Shown one piece after another: positions 33,902 through 45,108 of a DNA stretch of 64,000 nucleotides. The notes beneath the pieces were generated by a model that had not been told where the DNA came from, did not search any database, and saw only the letters and a list, made by a program, of their open reading frames with translations. Location of the stretch: positions 1-64,000 of the forward strand of contig CALUWN010000001.1 of NCBI GenBank assembly GCA_944324495.1. Reading direction: 5' to 3'. Position 1 is the first letter of the stretch, and each line of letters opens with the position of its first letter. A program made the position numbers and the translations under genes. Source of the stretch: an uncultured Mucispirillum sp. (lineage in GTDB: Bacteria; Chrysiogenota; Deferribacteres; Deferribacterales; Mucispirillaceae).

Positions 33902-33934
33902 AACAACTCCTGCTTTTTTGCAGGAGTTGTTTTT
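33902..33934. terminator. Bidirectional terminator between Dcu transporter and DUF362 gene
   Basis: AACAACTCCTGC (33902-33913) pairs with GCAGGAGTTGTT (33920-33931), followed by T residues on the plus strand. The minus gene's stop codon lies directly next to the stem. Confidence 0.85.
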
Positions 33935-34877
33935 ATATTTCAACTATCTTATAATTATCATTACCCATTTTCATTTCTTTCATATATGTAAGCTGCCGCA
34001 GCCCACTGCGAGATTCTATGCGTTCTACTAAATCTTTTCCCTGTCCATTTTTTTGGCTGTATATAATATCAACACAGGCTTTATCTATTGCTAGAATATC
34101 AGTAGAAGCAAGTATGCCGTAATCAGGTACAGTAGGTTTTGCAGCAGAAGTTCCTGCACAGTCGCAGTCTACACTCATATTTCTCATAACATTAATATAT
34201 ACTATTTTTTTTCCAAAATGGTCTGTAACAGCTTTGCCACCCTCTACCATATTTTCCATAAATTTTTCGCCCGTTGCATTCCACATCCCTTCATGAAGCT
34301 GGTTTTTACCAGTTTTACCAGAAGCTAAGCCTATGGATATATTTTTTAAAGAGCCACCAAAACCACCCATAGCATGCCCTTTAAAATGGGTTAGTACTAC
34401 CATAGAATCATAGTTTAATATATTTTTACCAAAAGCAATTTGTTTAAAATGTTTACCACCATTTACAGGCAGATTAATTTCACCGTCTTCATCCATAATA
34501 TCAACTGGAGCAAAAGTCCACCCGTTTGTTTTTAAGGTTTCTCTGTGAGTAGCAGTATTTTGCCTTGGGCTAGGGTATAACACATTACATTCTACAATTG
34601 TAGAATTAGGTACAACAGTTAAAAACTCTTTAACCCATGCTGGAGGAATAATATTTGGACCATGAGGCTCTCCTGTATGGAGTTTTACAGCCACTTTACC
34701 TGAAATGTTTTTATTAATGTATGAATATATCTTTTTAAGACCATTTGGGCTTAAATCTTTTGTCATATATACCGTAGATGATTCAGCCGCATTAGCACTA
34801 TCTAAATCAACACAAGATATAACAGCAGGAGCAATCATACCTGCCTTTAAAAGGTTTCTGCGAGTAATTTCTGCCAT
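33933..34877 (-). CDS. Tat-exported DUF362-domain protein
   Basis: The N-terminus has a twin-arginine signal (TRRNLLKAGMIAPAV, with cleavage near NAAES). The DUF362 domain follows (about 55-310): SGKVAVKLHTGEPHGPNIIPP, MVVLTHFKGHAMGGFGGSLKNISIGLAS and GKNQLHEG are family blocks. DUF362 proteins are often ferredoxin-linked; no CxxCxxC iron-sulfur motif is present here, although CDCAGTS contains two cysteines. The reaction is unknown. It is divergent from the AraC regulator at 35029 and probably its target. GGGAGG precedes the ATG. Confidence 0.85.
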   Translation of the reverse strand: MAEITRRNLLKAGMIAPAVISCVDLDSANAAESSTVYMTKDLSPNGLKKIYSYINKNISGKVAVKLHTGEPHGPNIIPPAWVKEFLTVVPNSTIVECNVLYPSPRQNTATHRETLKTNGWTFAPVDIMDEDGEINLPVNGGKHFKQIAFGKNILNYDSMVVLTHFKGHAMGGFGGSLKNISIGLASGKTGKNQLHEGMWNATGEKFMENMVEGGKAVTDHFGKKIVYINVMRNMSVDCDCAGTSAAKPTVPDYGILASTDILAIDKACVDIIYSQKNGQGKDLVERIESRSGLRQLTYMKEMKMGNDNYKIVEI

Positions 34878-35916: not shown

Positions 35917-35932
35917 TTTATAAGAAATAATA

Positions 35933-35965
35933 AAAAAGGCGGAAAATATATTTTTCCGCCTTTTT
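35933..35965. terminator. Bidirectional terminator
   Basis: AAAAAGGCGGAAAA pairs with TTTTCCGCCTTTTT (35952-35965), a 14-bp stem between the araC-type gene and the convergent superoxide reductase gene. Confidence 0.92.
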
Positions 35966-36010
35966 CATGCGTGTTAAAAAAACACTATTATTTTATAAGC
36001 TTCACTTTAA

Positions 36011-36382
36011 TTAGATAGCTAATTCAGATTCCCATAAACCATGGATATTGCAGTAGCTTACAGCATGTAATACACCCGATTTAGTGATTTTGCATCTGAA
36101 AACTGCCACAGGGTCAGTATGAGCTGCACCTTGGTTAGCACCTTGAGCAGATTCACCATGAGATAAAAATTCTGCTTTACCAATATGCTGAATAGCAGCT
36201 TCACCTTTATAGTATAAGTCAATATAAGCAATAAAGTGTTCTGTAGTATTTGGGTGAGCAATTTCTGCACCAACAGAAACTTCAACAACTAAGTTATCAC
36301 CTTCTTTAGATAAAACTTTTATTACTGGCACGTGTTTTTCAGCTTTAAAATCAGCTGTTTTTATTGAATTTGAAATAGGCAT
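36011..36382 (-). CDS. Class II superoxide reductase (neelaredoxin type)
   Basis: Superoxide reductase reduces superoxide to hydrogen peroxide without making oxygen and is typical of anaerobes. The iron site ligands are readable: H17 in EKHVP (with K16, the catalytic lysine), H42 and H48 in HPNTTEH, and C111 and H114 in YCNIHG. The N-terminal desulforedoxin domain of class I is absent, so this is class II. The 123-residue length fits. The ATG lies behind GGGAGGATAAT. It is transcribed alone. Confidence 0.95.
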   Translation of the reverse strand: MPISNSIKTADFKAEKHVPVIKVLSKEGDNLVVEVSVGAEIAHPNTTEHFIAYIDLYYKGEAAIQHIGKAEFLSHGESAQGANQGAAHTDPVAVFRCKITKSGVLHAVSYCNIHGLWESELAI

Positions 36383-36478
36383 ATTATCCTCCCTAATCTA
36401 TATTTATATATAATTATACCAATTTTATCTTATTTACGCAAGTATTTTAAAAGAGAAATATTGTTTTTTTGTGTGGAT

Positions 36479-36994
36479 TTATCTTATTTTCTCACATTTT
36501 TCCATATCTTTCATAAATAACTTGCTGGTATCTGCACGCATTTTTTCTTTAAATTTATCAAGCTGCTTGATTGTTTGTTTTTCCTGCTCAGATTTAATAA
36601 ATGTTTCCATATATTCATATGATGCATAAATTGCTTTATGGGTACAGTCTACATATTTTATATACTGCTGATAATCATCATCACTACTTCTTTTTCTATA
36701 CCTTTCAATTACTTCAAATGATTTATTTAATTTTTCTTTGATGTAACCAACATACCTAAGCATACGTTTATATGAAAGAGCATTTGTAATTTCAATTTCA
36801 TCTTTCATAATATCCATACTGATTAAATATAAGTTATCTTCAAGATAGTGTTTATATTTTTCTGCATTATTATCTACTTTTTTACTATTTACTTTCGCAG
36901 TTTTACTGCTGCTTTCATTTTGTATATTGAAAGCTGTATGTTTTGCACAACTTACAGTAAAAAAAATAGTTAATATTATTGCAAAAGTTCTCAT
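36479..36994 (-). CDS. Small lipoprotein, last gene of paralogous helical-protein array
   Basis: I recognise no named family. The signal ends in FFTVSCAKH, so Cys16 is probably acylated. The mature part (about 155 residues) is highly helical, with many Lys and Glu, and includes the segment YQQYIKYVDCTHKAIYASYEYMETF. That segment lines up with the YHEITIEYIKV region of the neighbour at 38685, though the G-x-(I/L)-T turn is lost. The start overlaps the preceding stop (ATGA). It is the most diverged member with Cys residues outside the lipobox. Confidence 0.75.
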   Translation of the reverse strand: MRTFAIILTIFFTVSCAKHTAFNIQNESSSKTAKVNSKKVDNNAEKYKHYLEDNLYLISMDIMKDEIEITNALSYKRMLRYVGYIKEKLNKSFEVIERYRKRSSDDDYQQYIKYVDCTHKAIYASYEYMETFIKSEQEKQTIKQLDKFKEKMRADTSKLFMKDMEKCEKIR

Positions 36995-37494
36995 TTAGCA
37001 GTATTACCTTGGTTAACTCTGTTTTCAAATTCTTTTGATAAGCTATCTAGTTTATCAAAAAGTTTTTCTAATTCATCCCATGTTGGTGAATTTAGTGACG
37101 AGAGAAAATTATTAGGGTCATTATTGTCTATTACTCTTATTACATATTCTTTGTTTAATTCAAATTCTTTTTTAGTGATTTCTTTTATTAAATTAACTAA
37201 TTCTTTACCTATTTTAGATTTAATATCATCAAAGTCTTTATCTATTAATTTAATTTGCTCTTTTGTCATATTTTCTATTTCTTTATTAAGTTCTTTTACT
37301 GCTTCTTCTTTATCCATATTTTCATATTTTTCTATCATTCCAAATAGATTATCCAGCTTTGAATTTTCGTAATAGTTTTCTAATTTACTTTCAAATATTT
37401 TTGCATCATTTTTTTCTTTTTCTGCTTCGCTTGCGCATCCTGCAAGCATTACTATAACAGTAAATGTTACAAGTAATTTTTTTACTAAATTCAC
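36991..37494 (-). CDS. Small lipoprotein in paralogous array
   Basis: The start is GTG at 37494 (AAGGAG seven bases upstream), sharing one base with the preceding stop. The signal ends in VMLAGCASE, so acylation is at Cys20. The mature 147 residues are an almost uninterrupted charged helix pattern (EKEKND, DKEEAVKELNKEIENM) with one break at LNSPTWDELEKL. It has least similarity to the shared core of the array. Membership rests mainly on position, size and lipoprotein signal. Function is unknown. Confidence 0.75.
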   Translation of the reverse strand: MNLVKKLLVTFTVIVMLAGCASEAEKEKNDAKIFESKLENYYENSKLDNLFGMIEKYENMDKEEAVKELNKEIENMTKEQIKLIDKDFDDIKSKIGKELVNLIKEITKKEFELNKEYVIRVIDNNDPNNFLSSLNSPTWDELEKLFDKLDSLSKEFENRVNQGNTAK

Positions 37495-37991
37495 TATTTC
37501 ATCTCCTTGACAATATTTTTTAATAATTTAGTTTGTTTTTTTTGTATATCTCTTATTTTCCTGCCATATATAACTTGTGTAAGTTTTGCATTGTTAGTAT
37601 TATCATGCTCGCCCATATTTTTAAACTGCCTAATCGTCTCTCTCACATATTCAGACTGTATTTCTAAGGACTGAATAGTATAATCGTGATATTTTTGCAT
37701 TTCTTTAGTAGCAATATAAACTTTAATTTCTTTCGTTAATAAAAGCAGATTTTTAAGCTTATTTTCTATATCTAAATTATCCTTTTCAAACTTAGCAGCA
37801 TCATTTGTTTGTTTAAAATCACTTATAGATTTTACCATTTGTTCATTAATAAGTTTGATTTTAACATTTAATTCCTGTTCAATGGCAGAATATCTATCAA
37901 TATCTTTTTTTAATATGCTTACATCAGTTTTAGCACAAGATATTACAAGTAACACAGAAAGTATTGCGGTAATTTTAATTATTTTCTTCAA
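37494..37991 (-). CDS. Small lipoprotein in paralogous array
   Basis: A 165-residue product with lipobox LLVISCAK (Cys19). The mature part is helical. The segment TKEMQKYHDYTIQSLEIQSE aligns with KTQEVKDYHEITIEYIKVRH of the protein at 38685, including the Y-H-x-x-T-I core. The downstream turn is altered (NMGEHDNTNNAKLTQV), keeping the LT. It overlaps the preceding gene (37975) by 17 bases, so expression is coupled. No biochemical function is known. Confidence 0.78.
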   Translation of the reverse strand: MKKIIKITAILSVLLVISCAKTDVSILKKDIDRYSAIEQELNVKIKLINEQMVKSISDFKQTNDAAKFEKDNLDIENKLKNLLLLTKEIKVYIATKEMQKYHDYTIQSLEIQSEYVRETIRQFKNMGEHDNTNNAKLTQVIYGRKIRDIQKKQTKLLKNIVKEMK

Positions 37992-38577
37992 GTAACTTAT
38001 CCACAGCTGAAAGGAAGTTTATGGCGTTTGTTTCCTCAATGGTTAAAGTGTTATGAGTATCATGAAGCATTTCATAGTATGTATCATATGTAAGGCTTCC
38101 TTCTTTTTTATAAACATCCCTAAGCTTATATATAGTTTCATTTTGTAGTTGAATGTATTTTTTTAAAGCAGTGTATGATATTTTGTACTGCTTACTTTTT
38201 GCATTATTATATGCATTATCTAATATTTCAAATAATTTTTTTTCATCTGTTTTAATATTTTCTTCTAATTTATCTATATCTATATCTGCATTATCAAGCA
38301 TAGCATCTAAAAGATTATTTGTATTATCATTTAATTTATCAAATACATTTCTTAATTCTAGTATGTACTGGTTTTGATAAGCATAAGTATCATTTTTTAA
38401 ATCATCTGATGAGTTTATAAATAACGCTAATTCCTGCATTGTTTCATTATTAGCTTTATTTGTAAAATTATCTAATGTGTTTAAGTCCTTACTACTATCC
38501 TTTAAAAAGATAACAATTGCACCTATAATAATCACAGCAATCAGCAGACCAGCAATCATTATATACTTTTTTTTCAT
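37975..38577 (-). CDS. Membrane-anchored small helical protein in paralogous array
   Basis: I choose the ATG at 38577 (MKKKYIMIAGLLIAV), behind AAAGG, rather than an ATG 63 bases further upstream. The 200-residue product has one hydrophobic segment (residues 6-25) with no obvious cleavage site or lipobox, so it is probably a signal-anchored membrane protein. The periplasmic part is helical and ends in the array's core: KQYKISYTALKKYIQLQNET, then VYKKEGSLTYDTYYEML, with the G-S-L-T turn. Function is unknown. Confidence 0.78.
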   Translation of the reverse strand: MKKKYIMIAGLLIAVIIIGAIVIFLKDSSKDLNTLDNFTNKANNETMQELALFINSSDDLKNDTYAYQNQYILELRNVFDKLNDNTNNLLDAMLDNADIDIDKLEENIKTDEKKLFEILDNAYNNAKSKQYKISYTALKKYIQLQNETIYKLRDVYKKEGSLTYDTYYEMLHDTHNTLTIEETNAINFLSAVDKLLEENN

Positions 38578-38684
38578 TTTACAGCCTTTATCATATAATT
38601 TATGATTATAATGATAGAATATTTTTATATACTGCAGCACTATTATTAAGTATTGCAGTATATTTTATTAAAATCAATTATTTT

Positions 38685-39200
38685 TTATTGTTTTGTAGTG
38701 CTTTGGTCTGGGTGAATAACCACGGTTAATTTTTTTAATATTTCAGCATTCTTTTTATCTAATTCAGTAAATGTCTTTGCATATTTGTTTGTTATTCTTT
38801 CTTTTTCAGTATCAGTAATTTTACCATTTTTTAAGTATGACGAAGTAGCATCTTTTAAAAATGCATGGCGAACTTTAATATATTCTATAGTAATTTCGTG
38901 ATAATCTTTTACTTCCTGAGTTTTAATTTTAGATGTGTATTGCTGCATACTATCAACAATATATTTTACTTGGTTATCAATAATTTTCATGCTGGCATTA
39001 ACATCATTTTTTGCACCTTTTTCAATAACATTATCAATAACAACAGTTTCTTGTTCAATTTTACCAAGAGCATCAACAATTTTTGTATTAATATCTCTAT
39101 TATACATTTCTAAATCTTTCATAATTTCTTCTTTAGTAGAAGCAAAAGAAATGCTTGTTACAGCAAATAATAAAAATAATAAAGTAAATAGTTTTTTCAT
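38685..39200 (-). CDS. Secreted small helical protein in paralogous array
   Basis: A Sec signal peptide (MKKLFTLLFLLFAVTSISFA) precedes 150 helical residues. The shared core is clearest here: KIKTQEVKDYHEITIEYIKV, then SYLKNGKITDTEKERITNKY. It matches the neighbour at 39223 (KFKTKNMKDALTYPFIEL, then FYENKGSITKKEIKEIEKKY). AGGAG precedes the ATG. About 108 bases of non-coding sequence separate it from the next gene, a possible internal promoter. Function is unknown. Confidence 0.8.
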   Translation of the reverse strand: MKKLFTLLFLLFAVTSISFASTKEEIMKDLEMYNRDINTKIVDALGKIEQETVVIDNVIEKGAKNDVNASMKIIDNQVKYIVDSMQQYTSKIKTQEVKDYHEITIEYIKVRHAFLKDATSSYLKNGKITDTEKERITNKYAKTFTELDKKNAEILKKLTVVIHPDQSTTKQ

Positions 39201-39222
39201 TTAATTCTCCTAAATCTATTAA

Positions 39223-39714
39223 TTAAAAAGCAGCGGATAAAAACGCAGACCTAATATCTGCTGCTAATTTTTTAATTGCTTTTTCTTCTTCTTTATATTT
39301 TTTTTCAATTTCTTTTATTTCTTTTTTAGTAATAGAACCTTTATTTTCATAAAAAGCCACTATTTCTTTAATAACCTTTTCATGGAAAGAAAGCTCAATA
39401 AAAGGGTAGGTAAGAGCATCTTTCATATTTTTTGTCTTAAATTTATTACTATTTTGCTTAATATAGTTATCAAGATACAAAATATCTGCATGTATTTGGT
39501 TGAGCTCATTTTTTACAAGCTTTGCATTATTTTTTATAAGTTGCTTTTTTATATTATTAATATTACCACAAACCTTCTTTTTTGTATTATTAATAACTTT
39601 TTCAATATCATGGGAATATATTTTATAATCATCAAATAAATCATCCCGCAGTGAAGCAAAAGCACTGCTTACAAACAAACAGTTAATGAGTAAAAGTGAT
39701 AAAATTTTATACAT
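39223..39714 (-). CDS. Secreted small helical protein in paralogous array
   Basis: The signal peptide (MYKILSLLLINCLFVSSAFA) contains a Cys at position 12 but no lipobox at the cleavage site. The mature part has the core KTKNMKD, then FYENKGSITKKEIKEIEKKY, and an extra mature Cys (KKVCGNINNI). AAGGTGC precedes the ATG. It lies 22 bases after the upstream gene at 38685's start side and 14 bases from the 39729 gene, so it is operonic. No known domain is seen. Confidence 0.8.
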   Translation of the reverse strand: MYKILSLLLINCLFVSSAFASLRDDLFDDYKIYSHDIEKVINNTKKKVCGNINNIKKQLIKNNAKLVKNELNQIHADILYLDNYIKQNSNKFKTKNMKDALTYPFIELSFHEKVIKEIVAFYENKGSITKKEIKEIEKKYKEEEKAIKKLAADIRSAFLSAAF

Positions 39715-39728
39715 AAAGCACCTTGAAA

Positions 39729-40325
39729 TTAAACTTTCATTTCACCAGCTAATGCAATAACAAGCATTGTAGTTTTTATAAACTGTTTACCTATTGTTTG
39801 CTCTTTATCATCATACTTATTCAGCAGCATTCTATATTCTTCTTTACTAAGTTGATTATAAAGGCAGTCCATAATCTCTTCACCAAGTTTTTCATCAATT
39901 TTTTCATATTTTGTAACGATGCCTTTATACTCACTAAAAGTGAGAGATTCATTTTCTGCAAATCGTTTAATTATTTCATAACCTTTTGCTATTTTAAAAC
40001 GGCACTGTTTATCAAGCAGGTTTGTGAAAACTCTCATTTTATATGTTTTAAAACCATGGAAGTTAGATTTTAAAATAGTCAAATTATGTTCTAAGTTTTT
40101 TAAAGTATTTCTTATTCTAAAAACATCATTCCTAGTAAGCTGAAATTTTGTAACATCAAGCATATTTACTGATTTATCTACCTGATTAACAATATCTTCA
40201 AATCTGGCTTCTAATCCGTTACTTAAAAGGTCTAAATCATCAGCAAAGTTTTTTATTTCACCAGTTGCATTTCTTGCACCAGTTTCAGCAATAAGTTTTG
40301 ATAGGTTAAATTCCTGTTCGTTCAT
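39729..40325 (-). CDS. Helical protein without signal peptide in paralogous array
   Basis: The 198-residue product is the only array member with no N-terminal signal: it starts MNEQEFNLSKLIAETGARNATGE. The core is present (GFKTYKMRVFTNLLDKQ, then RFAENESLTFSEYKGIVTKYEK), with E-S-L-T at the turn. The last 20 residues (TMLVIALAGEMKV) are hydrophobic, so it might be tail-associated with the membrane. The start is uncertain: a GTG at 40334 overlaps the upstream stop, and ATG 40325 is used here. It could be a cytoplasmic partner of the exported members. Confidence 0.75.
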   Translation of the reverse strand: MNEQEFNLSKLIAETGARNATGEIKNFADDLDLLSNGLEARFEDIVNQVDKSVNMLDVTKFQLTRNDVFRIRNTLKNLEHNLTILKSNFHGFKTYKMRVFTNLLDKQCRFKIAKGYEIIKRFAENESLTFSEYKGIVTKYEKIDEKLGEEIMDCLYNQLSKEEYRMLLNKYDDKEQTIGKQFIKTTMLVIALAGEMKV

Positions 40326-40330
40326 AATAA

Positions 40331-40780
40331 TCACATATTTTTATAGCGTTCTAAAGATTTTTGAAGTCGTTTAGCATCTTTTTCATATTTAGAAACAACA
40401 TTGTTATAATCTTTTTGCGTTATAGCACCAGTGTTTTCATAAACTTCCAAAAGTTCTTTTGTTACATTTATTGTTAAAAGTTGAATGGAAGCCATATCCT
40501 GCACTATTGAGTTAAGGTCTTTATTTTTAATAACTTCATCTGCCCTTGTTTTTATATCTGCAATAGTTTTTTCGCTTTCTTCAATTTTCTTTTTCATAGA
40601 AGGCAGTTGTTTATATATGTAGAGCCTTGTATTAGGACGCAGAGTATCAGTAATATTTTTTATTTCTCCGCCTGTTTCTAAAATAGTGCGTATCATGTCT
40701 TGAAATTCTGTCTGCTCATCAGCAAAGGCAAAACAGGGGATAGTAAAAGTTATAAGTAGTGCTGTTAAAAATTTCTTCAT
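40331..40780 (-). CDS. Secreted small helical protein, first gene of paralogous array
   Basis: The signal peptide MKKFLTALLITFTIPCFAFA is followed by 129 mature helical residues. The core turn is VYENTGAITQKDYNNVVSKYEKD, the best match to the 39729 and 39223 members. The N-terminal helix pair (LPSMKKKIEESEKTIADIKT) suggests a coiled coil. It is the promoter-proximal gene of the array, and its last codons run into the next start. An AT-rich gap of 77 bases separates it from the HNH gene. Confidence 0.8.
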   Translation of the reverse strand: MKKFLTALLITFTIPCFAFADEQTEFQDMIRTILETGGEIKNITDTLRPNTRLYIYKQLPSMKKKIEESEKTIADIKTRADEVIKNKDLNSIVQDMASIQLLTINVTKELLEVYENTGAITQKDYNNVVSKYEKDAKRLQKSLERYKNM

Positions 40781-40857
40781 ATTTATACTCTCATAATATA
40801 TAGTTATGTTATGGTATCAGTATTAATGCCCTTTTACAAGAAAAATATTACAAAAAT

Positions 40858-41157
40858 CTACTGTTTTTTAATATTTTCTAAATATTCGGCCCATTCAATT
40901 GGCAGTTTATGTTTTTTTGTATTATTACAATCTTTACAAGCTGGCACAATATTATTTTTTGTAGATTTGCCGCCGCGTATTAATGGGACAATATGGTCCA
41001 TAGTAAGTTCTTTTGGTGGAAAAGTTTTACCACAGTAGTAACATTCACCTTTAGAAATTTTTTCATTCCACCAGTTTGTTTTTCTAAGGCTTCTAGCTTT
41101 TTCTCTTTCTTTAGCAATATCTTTGCTGTCTGCTTGAGGTATAAAAAAATCATTCAT
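40858..41157 (-). CDS. Small HNH endonuclease-domain protein
   Basis: The 99-residue protein is almost entirely an HNH domain: GECYYCGKTF with the first zinc cysteine pair, DHIVPLIRGGKSTKNNIVPAC with the catalytic DH and the following N, and CKDCNNTKK with the second pair. Both structural zinc pairs and the catalytic His are intact, so it may be active. The N-terminus (residues 1-35) is charged. Such single-domain HNH proteins are common and their targets are unknown. No methylase or toxin partner is adjacent. It is upstream of the helical-protein array on the same strand. Confidence 0.85.
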   Translation of the reverse strand: MNDFFIPQADSKDIAKEREKARSLRKTNWWNEKISKGECYYCGKTFPPKELTMDHIVPLIRGGKSTKNNIVPACKDCNNTKKHKLPIEWAEYLENIKKQ

Positions 41158-41213
41158 AAATAAACTCTCATAAATTTTATGTAAAATTTTTAAAGATTTT
41201 TTACTTAATATTA

Positions 41214-41242
41214 TTGACCTAATAAAAATAATGTATTATGCT
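41214..41242 (+). promoter_or_regulatory. Probable promoter for pckA
   Basis: TTGACC (41214-41219), 17 bases, TATGCT (41237-41242). A short inverted repeat AGACTG.../CAGTCT lies between it and the ribosome site. Confidence 0.5.
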
Positions 41243-41308
41243 ACTATTTATAATTTAATTGAGACTGTTTGTAAATAGAAAACAGCAGTCTAAACGGAGG
41301 AAGAAAAT

Positions 41309-42913
41309 ATGAGCGCTTATAATGCTTCTACAGATTACTTAAAGTCATACGGTATTAATAACCCAAAGGCAATTTATTTAAATATGCCAACAGAAGCTCT
41401 TTATGAAGAAGCTATAAAACGTGGTGAAGGTCATGTGGTTAAAGGCGGTGCAATGGTATTTGAAACAGGTACACACACTGGCCGTTCTGCTCAAGATAAA
41501 TATGTAGTTAGAGAATCAACTTCAGAAAAAGATGTAAATTGGGATTCATCAGCTGCTAAAGAAGCAAGTGAAGCTCAGTTTGAAACATTATATAAAGATA
41601 TGATGGCTCATTGTGACGGTAAAGAATTATTCGTACAAGAATTATATGCTGGTGCAGATGAATCTTGCCGTTTAAAAGTTCGCGTTATTGGTGAATTTGC
41701 ATGGCATAACATGTTTGCACGCAATATGTTTATCTGCGAAAAAGATTTATCTAAATTAAAAGGTTTCCAAGCTGATTTTACTGTTATCTACCTCCCAAAT
41801 TTCCAAGCAGATACAGCAAAACATGGCACTCGTTCAAGCACAGTAATTATGCTTAATTTTGCTAAAAAAGTTGTATTAATCGGTGGTACTCAGTACGCTG
41901 GTGAACTTAAAAAATCTGTATTTACAGTAATGAACTACTATCTCCCAAAACAAGGAATTATGAGTATGCACTGCTCTGCTAATATTGGCGAAAAAGGTGA
42001 TACTGCTATTTTCTTTGGTTTATCTGGTACTGGTAAAACTACACTTTCTTCTGACCCTAAACGCGTATTAATCGGTGATGACGAACACGGTTGGAACGAT
42101 AAAGGCGTATTTAACATAGAAGGTGGCTGCTATGCGAAAGTTATTAAACTTTCTAAAGAAATGGAGCCAGATATTTATAAAACAACTCATTCTTATGGCA
42201 CAATCTTAGAAAACGTTGTTTATGACCCTGTTACAAGAGAAATTGATTTAGACAGCGATAAATTAACAGAAAACACTCGTTCTTCTTATCCGCTTACTCA
42301 AATGCCAAGAATTTCTCCAGATAATAAAGGCGGTCAGCCAAAAAATATTATCTTCTTAACTTATGATGCATTTGGTGTATTACCACCTGTTGCAAAACTT
42401 GACTTAAACCAAGCTATGTACCACTTTGTTTCTGGTTACACTGCTAAAGTTGCTGGTACTGAAAAAGGCGTTAAAGAGCCATCAGCTACTTTCTCAACTT
42501 GTTTTGGTGAACCATTTATGGTATTCCACCCATTCTTCTATGCTAAAATTTTAGCAGAAAAAATGAAAGCAAATGGCGTTAACGCTTACCTTGTTAACAC
42601 TGGTCTTTTTGGTGGTAAATATGGTGTTGGTCAACGTTTCTCTATTAAAGATACAAGGGCAATTGTTAATGCTATCTTAGACGGCGAAGTTGACAAAGGT
42701 GGCTTCCATGAATGCCCAGTATTTGGTTTTGGTATTCCTAACGCTATCCCTGGTGTTAACCCAGAAATTTTAGACCCTTCTAAAGGCTGGAAAGACCAAG
42801 CTGAATACAATGCTGCACTTAAAGATTTAGCATCTAAATTCGTTGAAAACTTCAAAAAATATCCTGAAAATGATATGACTAGCGAAGTTTTAAAAGGTGC
42901 TCCAAAAGCATAA
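41309..42913 (+). CDS. pckA: Phosphoenolpyruvate carboxykinase (ATP)
   Basis: The enzyme interconverts oxaloacetate plus ATP with PEP, CO2 and ADP. The 534-residue product has the P-loop GLSGTGKT at 237-244, GDDEHGWND (metal and kinase 1b region), the substrate Arg/Lys segments (ETGTHTGRSAQDKYVV) and RISPDNKGGQPKNIIFLTYDAFG. The ATP-type identity is clear from length and motifs. In anaerobes that make succinate it often runs toward oxaloacetate; this fits with the Dcu transporter. GGAGGAAG precedes the ATG. The last codons and terminator are duplicated at 43544-43684. Confidence 0.96.
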   Translation: MSAYNASTDYLKSYGINNPKAIYLNMPTEALYEEAIKRGEGHVVKGGAMVFETGTHTGRSAQDKYVVRESTSEKDVNWDSSAAKEASEAQFETLYKDMMAHCDGKELFVQELYAGADESCRLKVRVIGEFAWHNMFARNMFICEKDLSKLKGFQADFTVIYLPNFQADTAKHGTRSSTVIMLNFAKKVVLIGGTQYAGELKKSVFTVMNYYLPKQGIMSMHCSANIGEKGDTAIFFGLSGTGKTTLSSDPKRVLIGDDEHGWNDKGVFNIEGGCYAKVIKLSKEMEPDIYKTTHSYGTILENVVYDPVTREIDLDSDKLTENTRSSYPLTQMPRISPDNKGGQPKNIIFLTYDAFGVLPPVAKLDLNQAMYHFVSGYTAKVAGTEKGVKEPSATFSTCFGEPFMVFHPFFYAKILAEKMKANGVNAYLVNTGLFGGKYGVGQRFSIKDTRAIVNAILDGEVDKGGFHECPVFGFGIPNAIPGVNPEILDPSKGWKDQAEYNAALKDLASKFVENFKKYPENDMTSEVLKGAPKA

Positions 42914-43875: not shown

Positions 43876-45108
43876 TTATGGTATATCATATTCTTTTATG
43901 ATAATTTCTGACATACCGTTTTTTGGATAAATACTAAATATAGTTCCACCGTATTCATATTCAAGAGAAAATTGTAAAGCATCATTTTTCCAAGCATAAT
44001 TTACGCGATAAATACCACCTTCTGTTGGAGAATCAACCTCATTACTTATATTTTTTTTCTGTTTTATTTGCTCTATACTTGAAAAATATTTACTAAAATT
44101 ATTATATTTTTTTATTATTGCTTCATAACTTTGTATAACATCACCTTTAAATTTACATATTTTATAAGTGCTGAATTCAGTATCCTGCAATGTGCCATCA
44201 TAGTGAGTTCTATGTAAATAAGTGCAGTCATTTAAACCATAAGTTGTAGAATAAATTTCTTTAAGCTGGTTAGCTAACTCATTATATCGTGCTTTATAAG
44301 ACTGTTTTATACAATTAATATCGCTTTTACACTGGTTGCGTTTTTTTATCCATGCAATTTGTGCTGATTTAAGATTGTTTGTATTAGTATCATCTGCATA
44401 ATTAAGTAATTCTCTAAATAATCCTTTATACATATAATTTAGTTTTGCATCTTCATTAAAATTACCTTTTTCTGAAGCAGAACATATTGCTTTTTCAATT
44501 GCATTTCCTGCCTTTTTACAGTCAAAGCTTACAGGTAATGCTTTAGAAGTCATTGTAAGATAAGTTCCTTTTGTATCCTGCTTAAATTCTAATATTAATT
44601 CATTTGCCAGTGGATGATAATAATAACCTGAACCGTAAGCATGATATTTAACAGTAATCTGCTTTGGATTTTTATATTCATATTCTAATGTATTATCAAG
44701 CCATTGTTCATTTTTTTTCACACCATCACAAGCAAGGTCATTATCATAGTGCCATTCAAATTTTTTATTTGCTTTTGGAAGTCGTGTTGGCCACATGGTA
44801 AGTTTACATCTCTCTGCTATACTGTTGTGATTTTCAAAGTGTTTACCATCAGAAGTTTTTATATAACTTTCATAAGCTTGATTAATATCCATATTTTCAT
44901 AAAATGTGGTTATTCTTTCACGCTGAATATTATATTCATCAATAATATAGTCGATTTTTTGGTAAGAATTATATCCACCTTTATCTGAACTTGCCCGTAT
45001 ATCATACATATTTGCAATATCATGTGCAGATAATTCATCAAAATCTTGGGCAAATATTGTGCTTGGAAGTAGTATTAAAAATACTATAAATAAATATAAA
45101 TGTTTCAT
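43876..45108 (-). CDS. Secreted protein with LprI/DUF1311-like domain
   Basis: A 410-residue protein with a signal peptide (to about IFAQD). The N-terminal half (about 30-185) is not recognised. Residues about 190-280 carry the DUF1311/LprI pattern SFDCKKAGNAIEKAICSASE, then WIKKRNQCKSDINCIKQSYKARYNEL with a second Cys pair, which is the complete family form. LprI inhibits lysozyme in mycobacteria; here an anti-lysozyme role in a host is only possible. The promoter contains a palindromic operator (45143-45170). GAGGGAAGC precedes the ATG. Confidence 0.8.
   Translation of the reverse strand: MKHLYLFIVFLILLPSTIFAQDFDELSAHDIANMYDIRASSDKGGYNSYQKIDYIIDEYNIQRERITTFYENMDINQAYESYIKTSDGKHFENHNSIAERCKLTMWPTRLPKANKKFEWHYDNDLACDGVKKNEQWLDNTLEYEYKNPKQITVKYHAYGSGYYYHPLANELILEFKQDTKGTYLTMTSKALPVSFDCKKAGNAIEKAICSASEKGNFNEDAKLNYMYKGLFRELLNYADDTNTNNLKSAQIAWIKKRNQCKSDINCIKQSYKARYNELANQLKEIYSTTYGLNDCTYLHRTHYDGTLQDTEFSTYKICKFKGDVIQSYEAIIKKYNNFSKYFSSIEQIKQKKNISNEVDSPTEGGIYRVNYAWKNDALQFSLEYEYGGTIFSIYPKNGMSEIIIKEYDIP

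What the first reader, a model, noticed from the sequence alone, without database searches (positions are those of the whole stretch)
36479..40780. Eight-gene array of small helical envelope proteins sharing a C-terminal core
Eight consecutive minus-strand genes encode helical proteins of 149-201 residues: three Sec-secreted, three lipoproteins, one membrane-anchored and one without a signal. At least six share one core. It consists of a stretch like (F/I)KT-x-x-(V/M)-K-D or Y-H-x-x-T-I, then a turn (N/K)-x-G-(S/A/K)-(I/L)-T, followed by a charged helix ending K-Y. Examples are NGKITDTEKERITNKY (38685), NKGSITKKEIKEIEKKY (39223) and NTGAITQKDYNNVVSKY (40331). Genes overlap or nearly touch, so they are one unit. 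A tandem expansion that varies the export route while keeping one fold looks like a multi-component envelope complex or surface system that I cannot link to any known one.
Basis: partly seen in the sequence, partly recalled or inferred. Interest (0 to 1): 0.78.

Follow-up and report, generated by a model that had tools for sequence, protein, structure and literature searches.

The report
Mucispirillum-only array of four-helix envelope proteins
A gut bacterium of mucus carries a row of eight genes, most of them old tandem copies of one small four-helix protein that have each been sent to a different layer of the cell (cytoplasm, inner membrane, periplasm, lipid-anchored); the set occurs in every sequenced species of the genus Mucispirillum and, as far as could be searched, nowhere else, and its function is unknown.

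Summary
The array is real. Eight tightly packed minus-strand genes occur in the same order in all 9 other Mucispirillum genomes held (arrays cut by contig ends in two). They were not found in the other 41 genomes of the phylum, in phage records (g4), in plasmid records (g2), or, with a g2 pattern scan, in 84,980 species.

Profile-profile comparison with reversed controls shows homology over the whole mature domain of about 140 residues, not only a C-terminal core. It is strong for g3, g4, g5 and g6, moderate for g1, weaker for g2, reached only through intermediates for g7, and absent for g8. AlphaFold gives g4 as a confident four-helix bundle (pLDDT 92). g2, modelled from its own orthologs only (pLDDT 65), has the same helix layout.

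Each slot's export class is conserved across species. A promoter conserved in 9 of 9 species precedes g1; desulfoferrodoxin downstream has its own. Sister genera show that the flanking genes are old neighbours, so the array arose or was inserted between them in the Mucispirillum ancestor.

Exported members evolve fast; cytoplasmic g2 is nearly frozen. One species has a broken g3, and slot 7 was recently exchanged between species.

The parts
40331..40780 (-). g1: Sec-secreted four-helix family member, 149 aa
   Evidence: ORF; orthologs in Mucispirillum genomes, 60-85% identical; HHalign 66 with g3, 54 with the core profile, reversed <1; hit by the core HMM at 8e-4
39729..40325 (-). g2: member without a signal, predicted cytoplasmic, 198 aa from the conserved ATG (a GTG start at 40334 is also open)
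   Evidence: Start MNEQEF/MNEKEF shared by 10 species, mean pairwise identity 90%, dN/dS 0.02-0.06; helix layout H30-57/68-92/98-128/133-161; HHalign g1-g2 36, tree pairs g1+g2 94/83
39223..39714 (-). g3: Sec-secreted member, 163 aa; broken in G006
   Evidence: HHalign g3-g4 94.8, g3-g5 88.6; pseudogene remnant with internal stop in L018
38685..39200 (-). g4: Sec-secreted member, 171 aa; four-helix bundle
   Evidence: AlphaFold pLDDT 92.0, pTM 0.83, helices 3-41, 47-69, 75-105, 110-142 of the mature chain
37975..38577 (-). g5: inner-membrane-anchored member (N-terminal hydrophobic segment), 200 aa
   Evidence: HHalign with g3 88.6 and g4 83.2; hydrophobic N-terminus in the orthologs
37494..37991 (-). 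g6: lipoprotein member, 165 aa, TTG start
   Evidence: HHalign with g4 93.1; lipobox ...SC-AKTD conserved
36991..37494 (-). g7: lipoprotein in the exchanged slot 7, 167 aa
   Evidence: 96-99% identical at DNA level to a G001 gene while flanks fall to 63-76%; linked to the family only by the chain type A - type B (76.9) - g7b (94.4) - core (92.7)
36479..36994 (-). g8: lipoprotein, 171 aa, no detectable homology to g1-g7; two invariant Cys in the mature part
   Evidence: HHalign <1 with all groups; same slot in all arrays that reach it; invariant Cys
40811..40839 (-). predicted promoter of the array: TTGTAA - 17 nt - TACCAT with extended -10 (TGA)
   Evidence: TTGTAA-N17-TAnnAT, with TGn before it, at 29-34 nt before the g1 ATG in 9 of 9 species
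36413..36441 (-). predicted separate promoter of desulfoferrodoxin: TTGCGT - 17 nt - TATAAT
   Evidence: same element between g8 and desulfoferrodoxin in 8 of 8 species; -10 is TATGCT in two
36011..36382 (-). neighbour, not part of the system: desulfoferrodoxin (superoxide reductase)
   Evidence: Pfam PF01880 1.7e-27; present across the order in array-free genomes
40858..41157 (-). neighbour, not part of the system: 99-aa HNH endonuclease
   Evidence: PF14279 7e-17; one copy in 44 of 46 genomes of the order, next to alaS and pckA in the sister genera looked at
35930..35968 (-). terminator-like hairpin after desulfoferrodoxin
   Evidence: 17-pair stem with T tail

Best explanation
The array is a genus-specific operon made by old tandem duplication of one gene for a small four-helix-bundle protein. 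After duplication the copies acquired different targeting signals. The result is a set of related bundles on both sides of the inner membrane: g2 in the cytoplasm, g5 anchored in the inner membrane, g1, g3 and g4 (plus an extra g4-like copy in two species) free in the periplasm, and g6 and the slot-7 gene as lipoproteins; g8 is a lipoprotein of the unit without detectable kinship. Shown here: operon layout, homology, conserved slots, genus restriction, a conserved promoter-like element and evolutionary rates. Inferred: related bundles that are made together pair with each other, so the products most likely form a hetero-oligomeric helical assembly in the periplasm, tied to the inner membrane by g5 and to a lipid layer by g6-g8. 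The near-invariant g2 would be the partner that touches a conserved intracellular protein, or that holds the exported siblings before Sec export. The best guess for purpose is an envelope structure or sensor suited to life in gut mucus.
For: Same gene order in 10 species with overlapping genes. Homology by profile comparison with reversed controls. Adjacent genes group in the tree: g1+g2 94/83, g3+g4+g4x 71/99. Four-helix fold for g4 at pLDDT 92 and the same layout for g2. Export class fixed per slot. One conserved promoter-like element before g1 and another before desulfoferrodoxin. Purifying selection, dN/dS mostly 0.02-0.5.
Against: No direct evidence of interaction between the products. 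g3 is lost in one species, slot 7 is replaced and g4x comes and goes, so an obligate fixed-stoichiometry complex is unlikely. g8 shows no homology and the window's g7 only a chain of intermediates. The Foldseek matches are generic helix bundles with E above 0.1.
Confidence: 0.45

Rival explanations
1. Host-interaction (surface) array: a tandem family of helical lipoproteins and secreted proteins that bind host or mucus molecules, like the Borrelia PFam54 array, with copies gained, lost and exchanged as the host range changes.
For: Mucispirillum is a gut-mucus inhabitant of animals (PMC5285517); fast divergence of exported members (mean identity 48-71% against 85-96% for flanking HNH, desulfoferrodoxin, DUF362 and pckA); recent inter-species exchange of slot 7; g3 loss and g4x copies.
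Against: The most conserved member is predicted cytoplasmic and soluble periplasmic copies make up three of eight; no gene outside slot 7 shows dN/dS near 1; gene order is fixed across species.
Confidence: 0.25
2. Independent periplasmic ligand sensors or carriers: each bundle binds a small molecule or metal, like a free-standing chemoreceptor four-helix sensor domain, and there is no complex.
For: Among the best solved-structure neighbours of the g4 model are chemoreceptor ligand domains (Vc1313, PcaY_PP, Tsr; probability up to 0.98, TM about 0.5).
Against: E-values are 0.16 or worse; no 4HB_MCP match in Pfam for any of 41 sequences; no signalling domain attached; no conserved ligand residues recognised.
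Confidence: 0.15
3. Immunity or defence array (against type VI effectors or phage) with products placed where each toxin acts.
For: M. schaedleri has a type VI system (PMC5285517); periplasmic and lipoprotein immunity proteins exist (general knowledge); an HNH gene is adjacent.
Against: No credible PADLOC match for g1-g8; the set is the same in all species rather than variable; HNH is an order-wide gene unrelated to the array.
Confidence: 0.07
4. The resemblance is only helical, Lys/Glu-rich composition, and the genes are unrelated.
For: Low GC (24-30%) and Lys/Glu/Asn/Ile-rich sequence; g8 does fail all tests; spurious coiled-coil matches in Pfam.
Against: Reversed profiles of the same composition score far lower; alignments are full-length and colinear; an HMM retrieves members left out of it.
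Confidence: 0.03

Closest known systems
Borrelia PFam54_60 array (CspA, BBA64-BBA73, BBE31, Chi proteins)
   Same: Cluster of paralogous, mostly helical envelope proteins restricted to a host-associated group; divergence of members
   Different: PFam54_60 members are outer-surface lipoproteins with a larger CspA-like fold (Chi helical core alpha1-alpha8 plus S-domain, PMC13128870); here a four-helix bundle with cytoplasmic, membrane-anchored and soluble periplasmic copies, and no Pfam match
Four-helix-bundle ligand domains of chemoreceptors (4HB_MCP, PcaY_PP, Tsr)
   Same: Four-helix bundle of about 140 residues on the periplasmic side; among the top Foldseek matches
   Different: No sequence match, no second membrane helix, no HAMP or signalling domain; stand-alone proteins
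Staphylococcus aureus tandem lipoproteins (from memory, a lead only)
   Same: Tandem paralogous lipoprotein genes
   Different: All are lipoproteins of a different domain in a Gram-positive genomic island; not compared here

Membership tests
Borrelia PFam54_60 | sequence match to the family | tested here: not met
   No such Pfam match for g1-g8 or among families listed for 41 core sequences
Borrelia PFam54_60 | outer-surface lipoproteins throughout the array | tested here: not met
   Only 3 of 8 carry a lipobox; surface exposure itself not testable here
Borrelia PFam54_60 | tandem paralogous array | tested here: met
Borrelia PFam54_60 | CspA-like fold | tested here: inconclusive
   g4 is a four-helix bundle; no PFam54_60 structure among the 50 g4 matches shown; BBE31 appears at rank 25, E 1.5, only for the low-confidence g2 model
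4HB_MCP chemoreceptor domain | four-helix bundle fold | tested here: met
   TM about 0.5 to PcaY_PP and Vc1313
4HB_MCP chemoreceptor domain | Pfam sequence match and attached signalling module | tested here: not met
   ORFs end after the bundle
Type VI immunity or anti-phage defence system | match to known system proteins | tested here: not met
   Only coiled-coil-level PADLOC scores for g1 and g7
Phage or plasmid cargo | relatives in phage or plasmid records | tested here: not met
   g4 against phages, g2 against plasmids and viral contigs: none
Hetero-oligomeric envelope complex | physical contact between products | not testable with these tools

The most novel reading that the evidence does not exclude
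A genus-specific nanostructure crosses the envelope of Mucispirillum and is built from paralogous four-helix bundles distributed over cytoplasm, inner membrane, periplasm and a lipid layer: one fold duplicated and re-addressed to each compartment to make a new machine, with a frozen cytoplasmic base and fast-evolving outer parts.
Probability: 0.2. Interest if true: 0.8.

Novelty: new variant of a known kind. Interest (0 to 1): 0.5.

Why it matters
Lineage-specific paralogue arrays are known, but one whose copies are addressed to four different places around the inner membrane, in fixed order in every species of a host-bound genus, is unusual. Sister genera show the neighbourhood without the array, so the birth of the operon is bracketed. 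If the products assemble, this would be a case of a multi-compartment complex made by duplicating and re-targeting one small domain. If they do not, it is a candidate set of mucus-adaptation factors in a bacterium linked to gut inflammation in mice.

Tried and rejected
Tie to the HNH nuclease: rejected; it is an order-wide single-copy gene beside alaS and pckA in the sister genera looked at. Tie to desulfoferrodoxin: rejected as a core part; it is order-wide and has its own conserved promoter-like element. Further paralogues elsewhere in the genome: hits in contigs 26, 7 and 4 are antisense or in unrelated genes. Origin from a chemoreceptor sensor domain: the 518-aa hit in contig 4 lies in a kinase-like gene, not a receptor; no Pfam 4HB match. 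Phage, plasmid or viral source: no match. Phasin, TrbJ/VirB5, EF-hand-like and LemA matches: all below curated cut-offs and of coiled-coil type. Horizontal-transfer signs from composition: GC lower than flanks but GC3 mostly similar, so not decisive. Known RNAs or tRNAs near the array: none. A viral scan with the core alignment could not be run because no stretch is conserved enough. The published in vivo transcriptome of M. schaedleri mentions five colon-induced genes of unknown function, three predicted exported (PMC5285517); whether they are these could not be checked, as the supplement is not readable here.
Full report
WHAT IS THERE. The window lies in a 2.43-Mb genome whose congeners are named Mucispirillum (phylum Deferribacterota; record titles). 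Eight minus-strand genes fill 36479-40780. In order of transcription they are g1 to g8: g1, g3 and g4 with a cleavable Sec signal, g2 without a signal, g5 with an N-terminal membrane anchor, and g6, g7 and g8 with a lipobox. Genes overlap or lie within about 22 nt except for a 107-nt gap before g5.

CONSERVATION. A search of 60 related genomes with g4 found clear relatives only in the nine other genomes of the genus. Reading the loci shows HNH - g1 - g2 - g3 - g4 - g5 - g6 - slot 7 - g8 - desulfoferrodoxin in the same order. Contig ends cut the array in two genomes, one at each end. Two species have an extra g4-like copy between g3 and g4 (g4x), and G001 and G006 hold two genes at slot 7. In G006 g3 is a remnant with a stop codon. 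The export class belongs to the slot: it is the same across species (simple hydrophobicity and lipobox rules, not SignalP; two rows were trimmed too far and their full ORFs do carry the signal; G006's second slot-7 ORF lacks a signal and may be truncated).

HOMOLOGY. Single-sequence comparisons already link g3-g4, g4-g6 and g1-g3. With ortholog profiles (signals removed) HHalign gives: g3-g4 94.8, g3-g5 88.6, g4-g5 83.2, g4-g6 93.1, g4-g4x 99.9, g1-g3 66, g1-g4 39, g1-g2 36. The same pairs with one profile reversed give 11 or less, and 5.4 or less apart from g4-g4x. Not every core pair is linked directly (g3-g6 and g5-g6 are below 1); they join through g4. The pooled core profile (A3) matches the common slot-7 gene g7b at 92.7 (reversed 0.8) and g1 at 53.7 (reversed 0.5), but g2 only at 1.3, the g7 group at 2.1 and g8 at 0.1. 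An HMM from A3, which contains no g1 or slot-7 sequence, finds g7b in G005 at 2.5e-8 and g1 in several genomes at 4e-4 to 8e-3, 8e-4 in this window. The g2 HMM finds g1 at 0.002 in G009. The window's g7 is a different lineage of slot 7: it matches the other slot-7 type of G001/G006 (76.9), which matches g7b (94.4), but it has no direct link to the core. g8 has no link at all. In the tree each slot is essentially one clade (apart from the mixed slot-7 set and g4, which is broken by g4x), so most duplications predate the radiation of the genus; neighbours g1+g2 and g3+g4 group together, as tandem duplication predicts, but deep supports are moderate and several long branches meet.

FOLD. The mature g4 with its 41-row alignment is predicted as a four-helix bundle, pLDDT 92, helices 3-41, 47-69, 75-105 and 110-142. 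g2, modelled only from its own orthologs, is less certain (pLDDT 65) but has the same order of helices at matching places. Foldseek finds only generic bundles, chemoreceptor ligand domains among the best, none with E below 0.1 in solved structures or in viral models. No Pfam, NCBIfam, PHROGs or PADLOC family claims any of the eight at a credible level.

TAXONOMIC RANGE. The core profile finds nothing outside the genus in 51 genomes of the phylum at E<=0.001; one further hit inside the window's own genome is an antisense chance match. g1 and g8 profiles are also confined to the genus apart from marginal hits, and g2 within the family. A pattern scan for g2 in 84,980 species returned only Mucispirillum, and phage, plasmid and viral collections gave nothing. 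Very distant relatives in other phyla cannot be excluded, as the wide scan used only two conserved g2 peptides.

CONTEXT AND BIRTH. The HNH gene and desulfoferrodoxin are present across the order. In the sister genera looked at, HNH stands divergent from pckA and is followed by alaS; in G011 of the same family the order is alaS< HNH< pckA> desulfoferrodoxin>. In Mucispirillum the pckA-HNH pair is flipped relative to alaS, which brings HNH to face desulfoferrodoxin, and the array lies exactly between them. Outside this block the flanks change in G007 (upstream) and G002 (downstream). So the neighbours are inherited geography, not functional partners. The gap before g1 holds TTGTAA-N17-TAnnAT, preceded by TGn, at 29-34 nt from the start codon in 9 of 9 species, and desulfoferrodoxin has its own element, TTGCnT-N17-TATAnT (TATGCT in two species), in 8 of 8. 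A terminator-like hairpin follows desulfoferrodoxin. The array is therefore most likely its own transcription unit, possibly read through into desulfoferrodoxin. These are sequence predictions, not mapped starts; the general promoter scan of this AT-rich region was no richer than its shuffles, so the weight rests on the conservation.

RATES AND EXCHANGE. Mean pairwise identity is 90% for g2, 71% for g1, 61-63% for g3, g4, g6 and g8, and 48% for g5, against 86% for HNH, 85% for desulfoferrodoxin and 96% for pckA. dN/dS is 0.02-0.06 for g2 and mostly 0.1-0.5 elsewhere. Slot 7 is a mosaic: this window and G001 share it at 96-99% DNA identity while the flanking stretches fall to 63-76% upstream and 67-73% in g8, and dS there is 0.09 against 0.37-1.19 for the other genes of the pair. 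That is recent recombination between species over about one gene.

INTERPRETATION. Shown: an old, genus-bound operon of re-targeted four-helix paralogues. Inferred: that the siblings pair with one another and form an envelope assembly with g5 as inner-membrane anchor and lipoproteins as outer anchors. The frozen g2 argues that something conserved is touched in the cytoplasm; its tight coupling to g1 and grouping with g1 would also suit a role in holding exported siblings. Loss of g3 and turnover of slot 7 argue against a rigid machine in which every part is needed and leave room for a host- or mucus-facing set of proteins like the Borrelia PFam54 cluster (PMC13128870), though that set consists of surface lipoproteins of a larger fold. 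I put the assembly reading at 0.45, the host-interaction reading at 0.25 and free-standing sensors at 0.15.

LIMITS. Most of the genomes are metagenome-assembled. Export calls are rule-based. Statements about expression rest on no data from this locus.

Noticed in passing
L018 6440-6780 (G006): g3 is a pseudogene remnant (matches g3 residues about 79-123 with an internal stop) while g1, g2 and g4-g6 stay intact; a natural single-gene loss.
   Followed up: yes
36991-37494 and L013:8152-8655: Slot-7 lipoprotein shared between two species at about 97% DNA identity inside much more diverged flanks: recent inter-species recombination of about one gene.
   Followed up: yes
40858-42913: The pckA-HNH divergent pair is inverted relative to alaS compared with sister genera; the array sits between HNH and desulfoferrodoxin at the breakpoint side.
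   Followed up: partly
L019 10163-11553 (G007): Transposase-like genes lie just after desulfoferrodoxin in the single-contig genome G007, and ruvC/ruvA/ruvB-type genes replace pckA upstream: local rearrangement.
   Followed up: no
43876-45108: 410-aa secreted protein with a Cys-rich stretch that looks like a lysozyme-inhibitor (LprI-type) domain by eye; no Pfam match at 1e-4.
   Followed up: partly
33933-34877: DUF362 protein with a Tat-like N-terminus (RRNLLKAG), conserved beside the array in several species.
   Followed up: no
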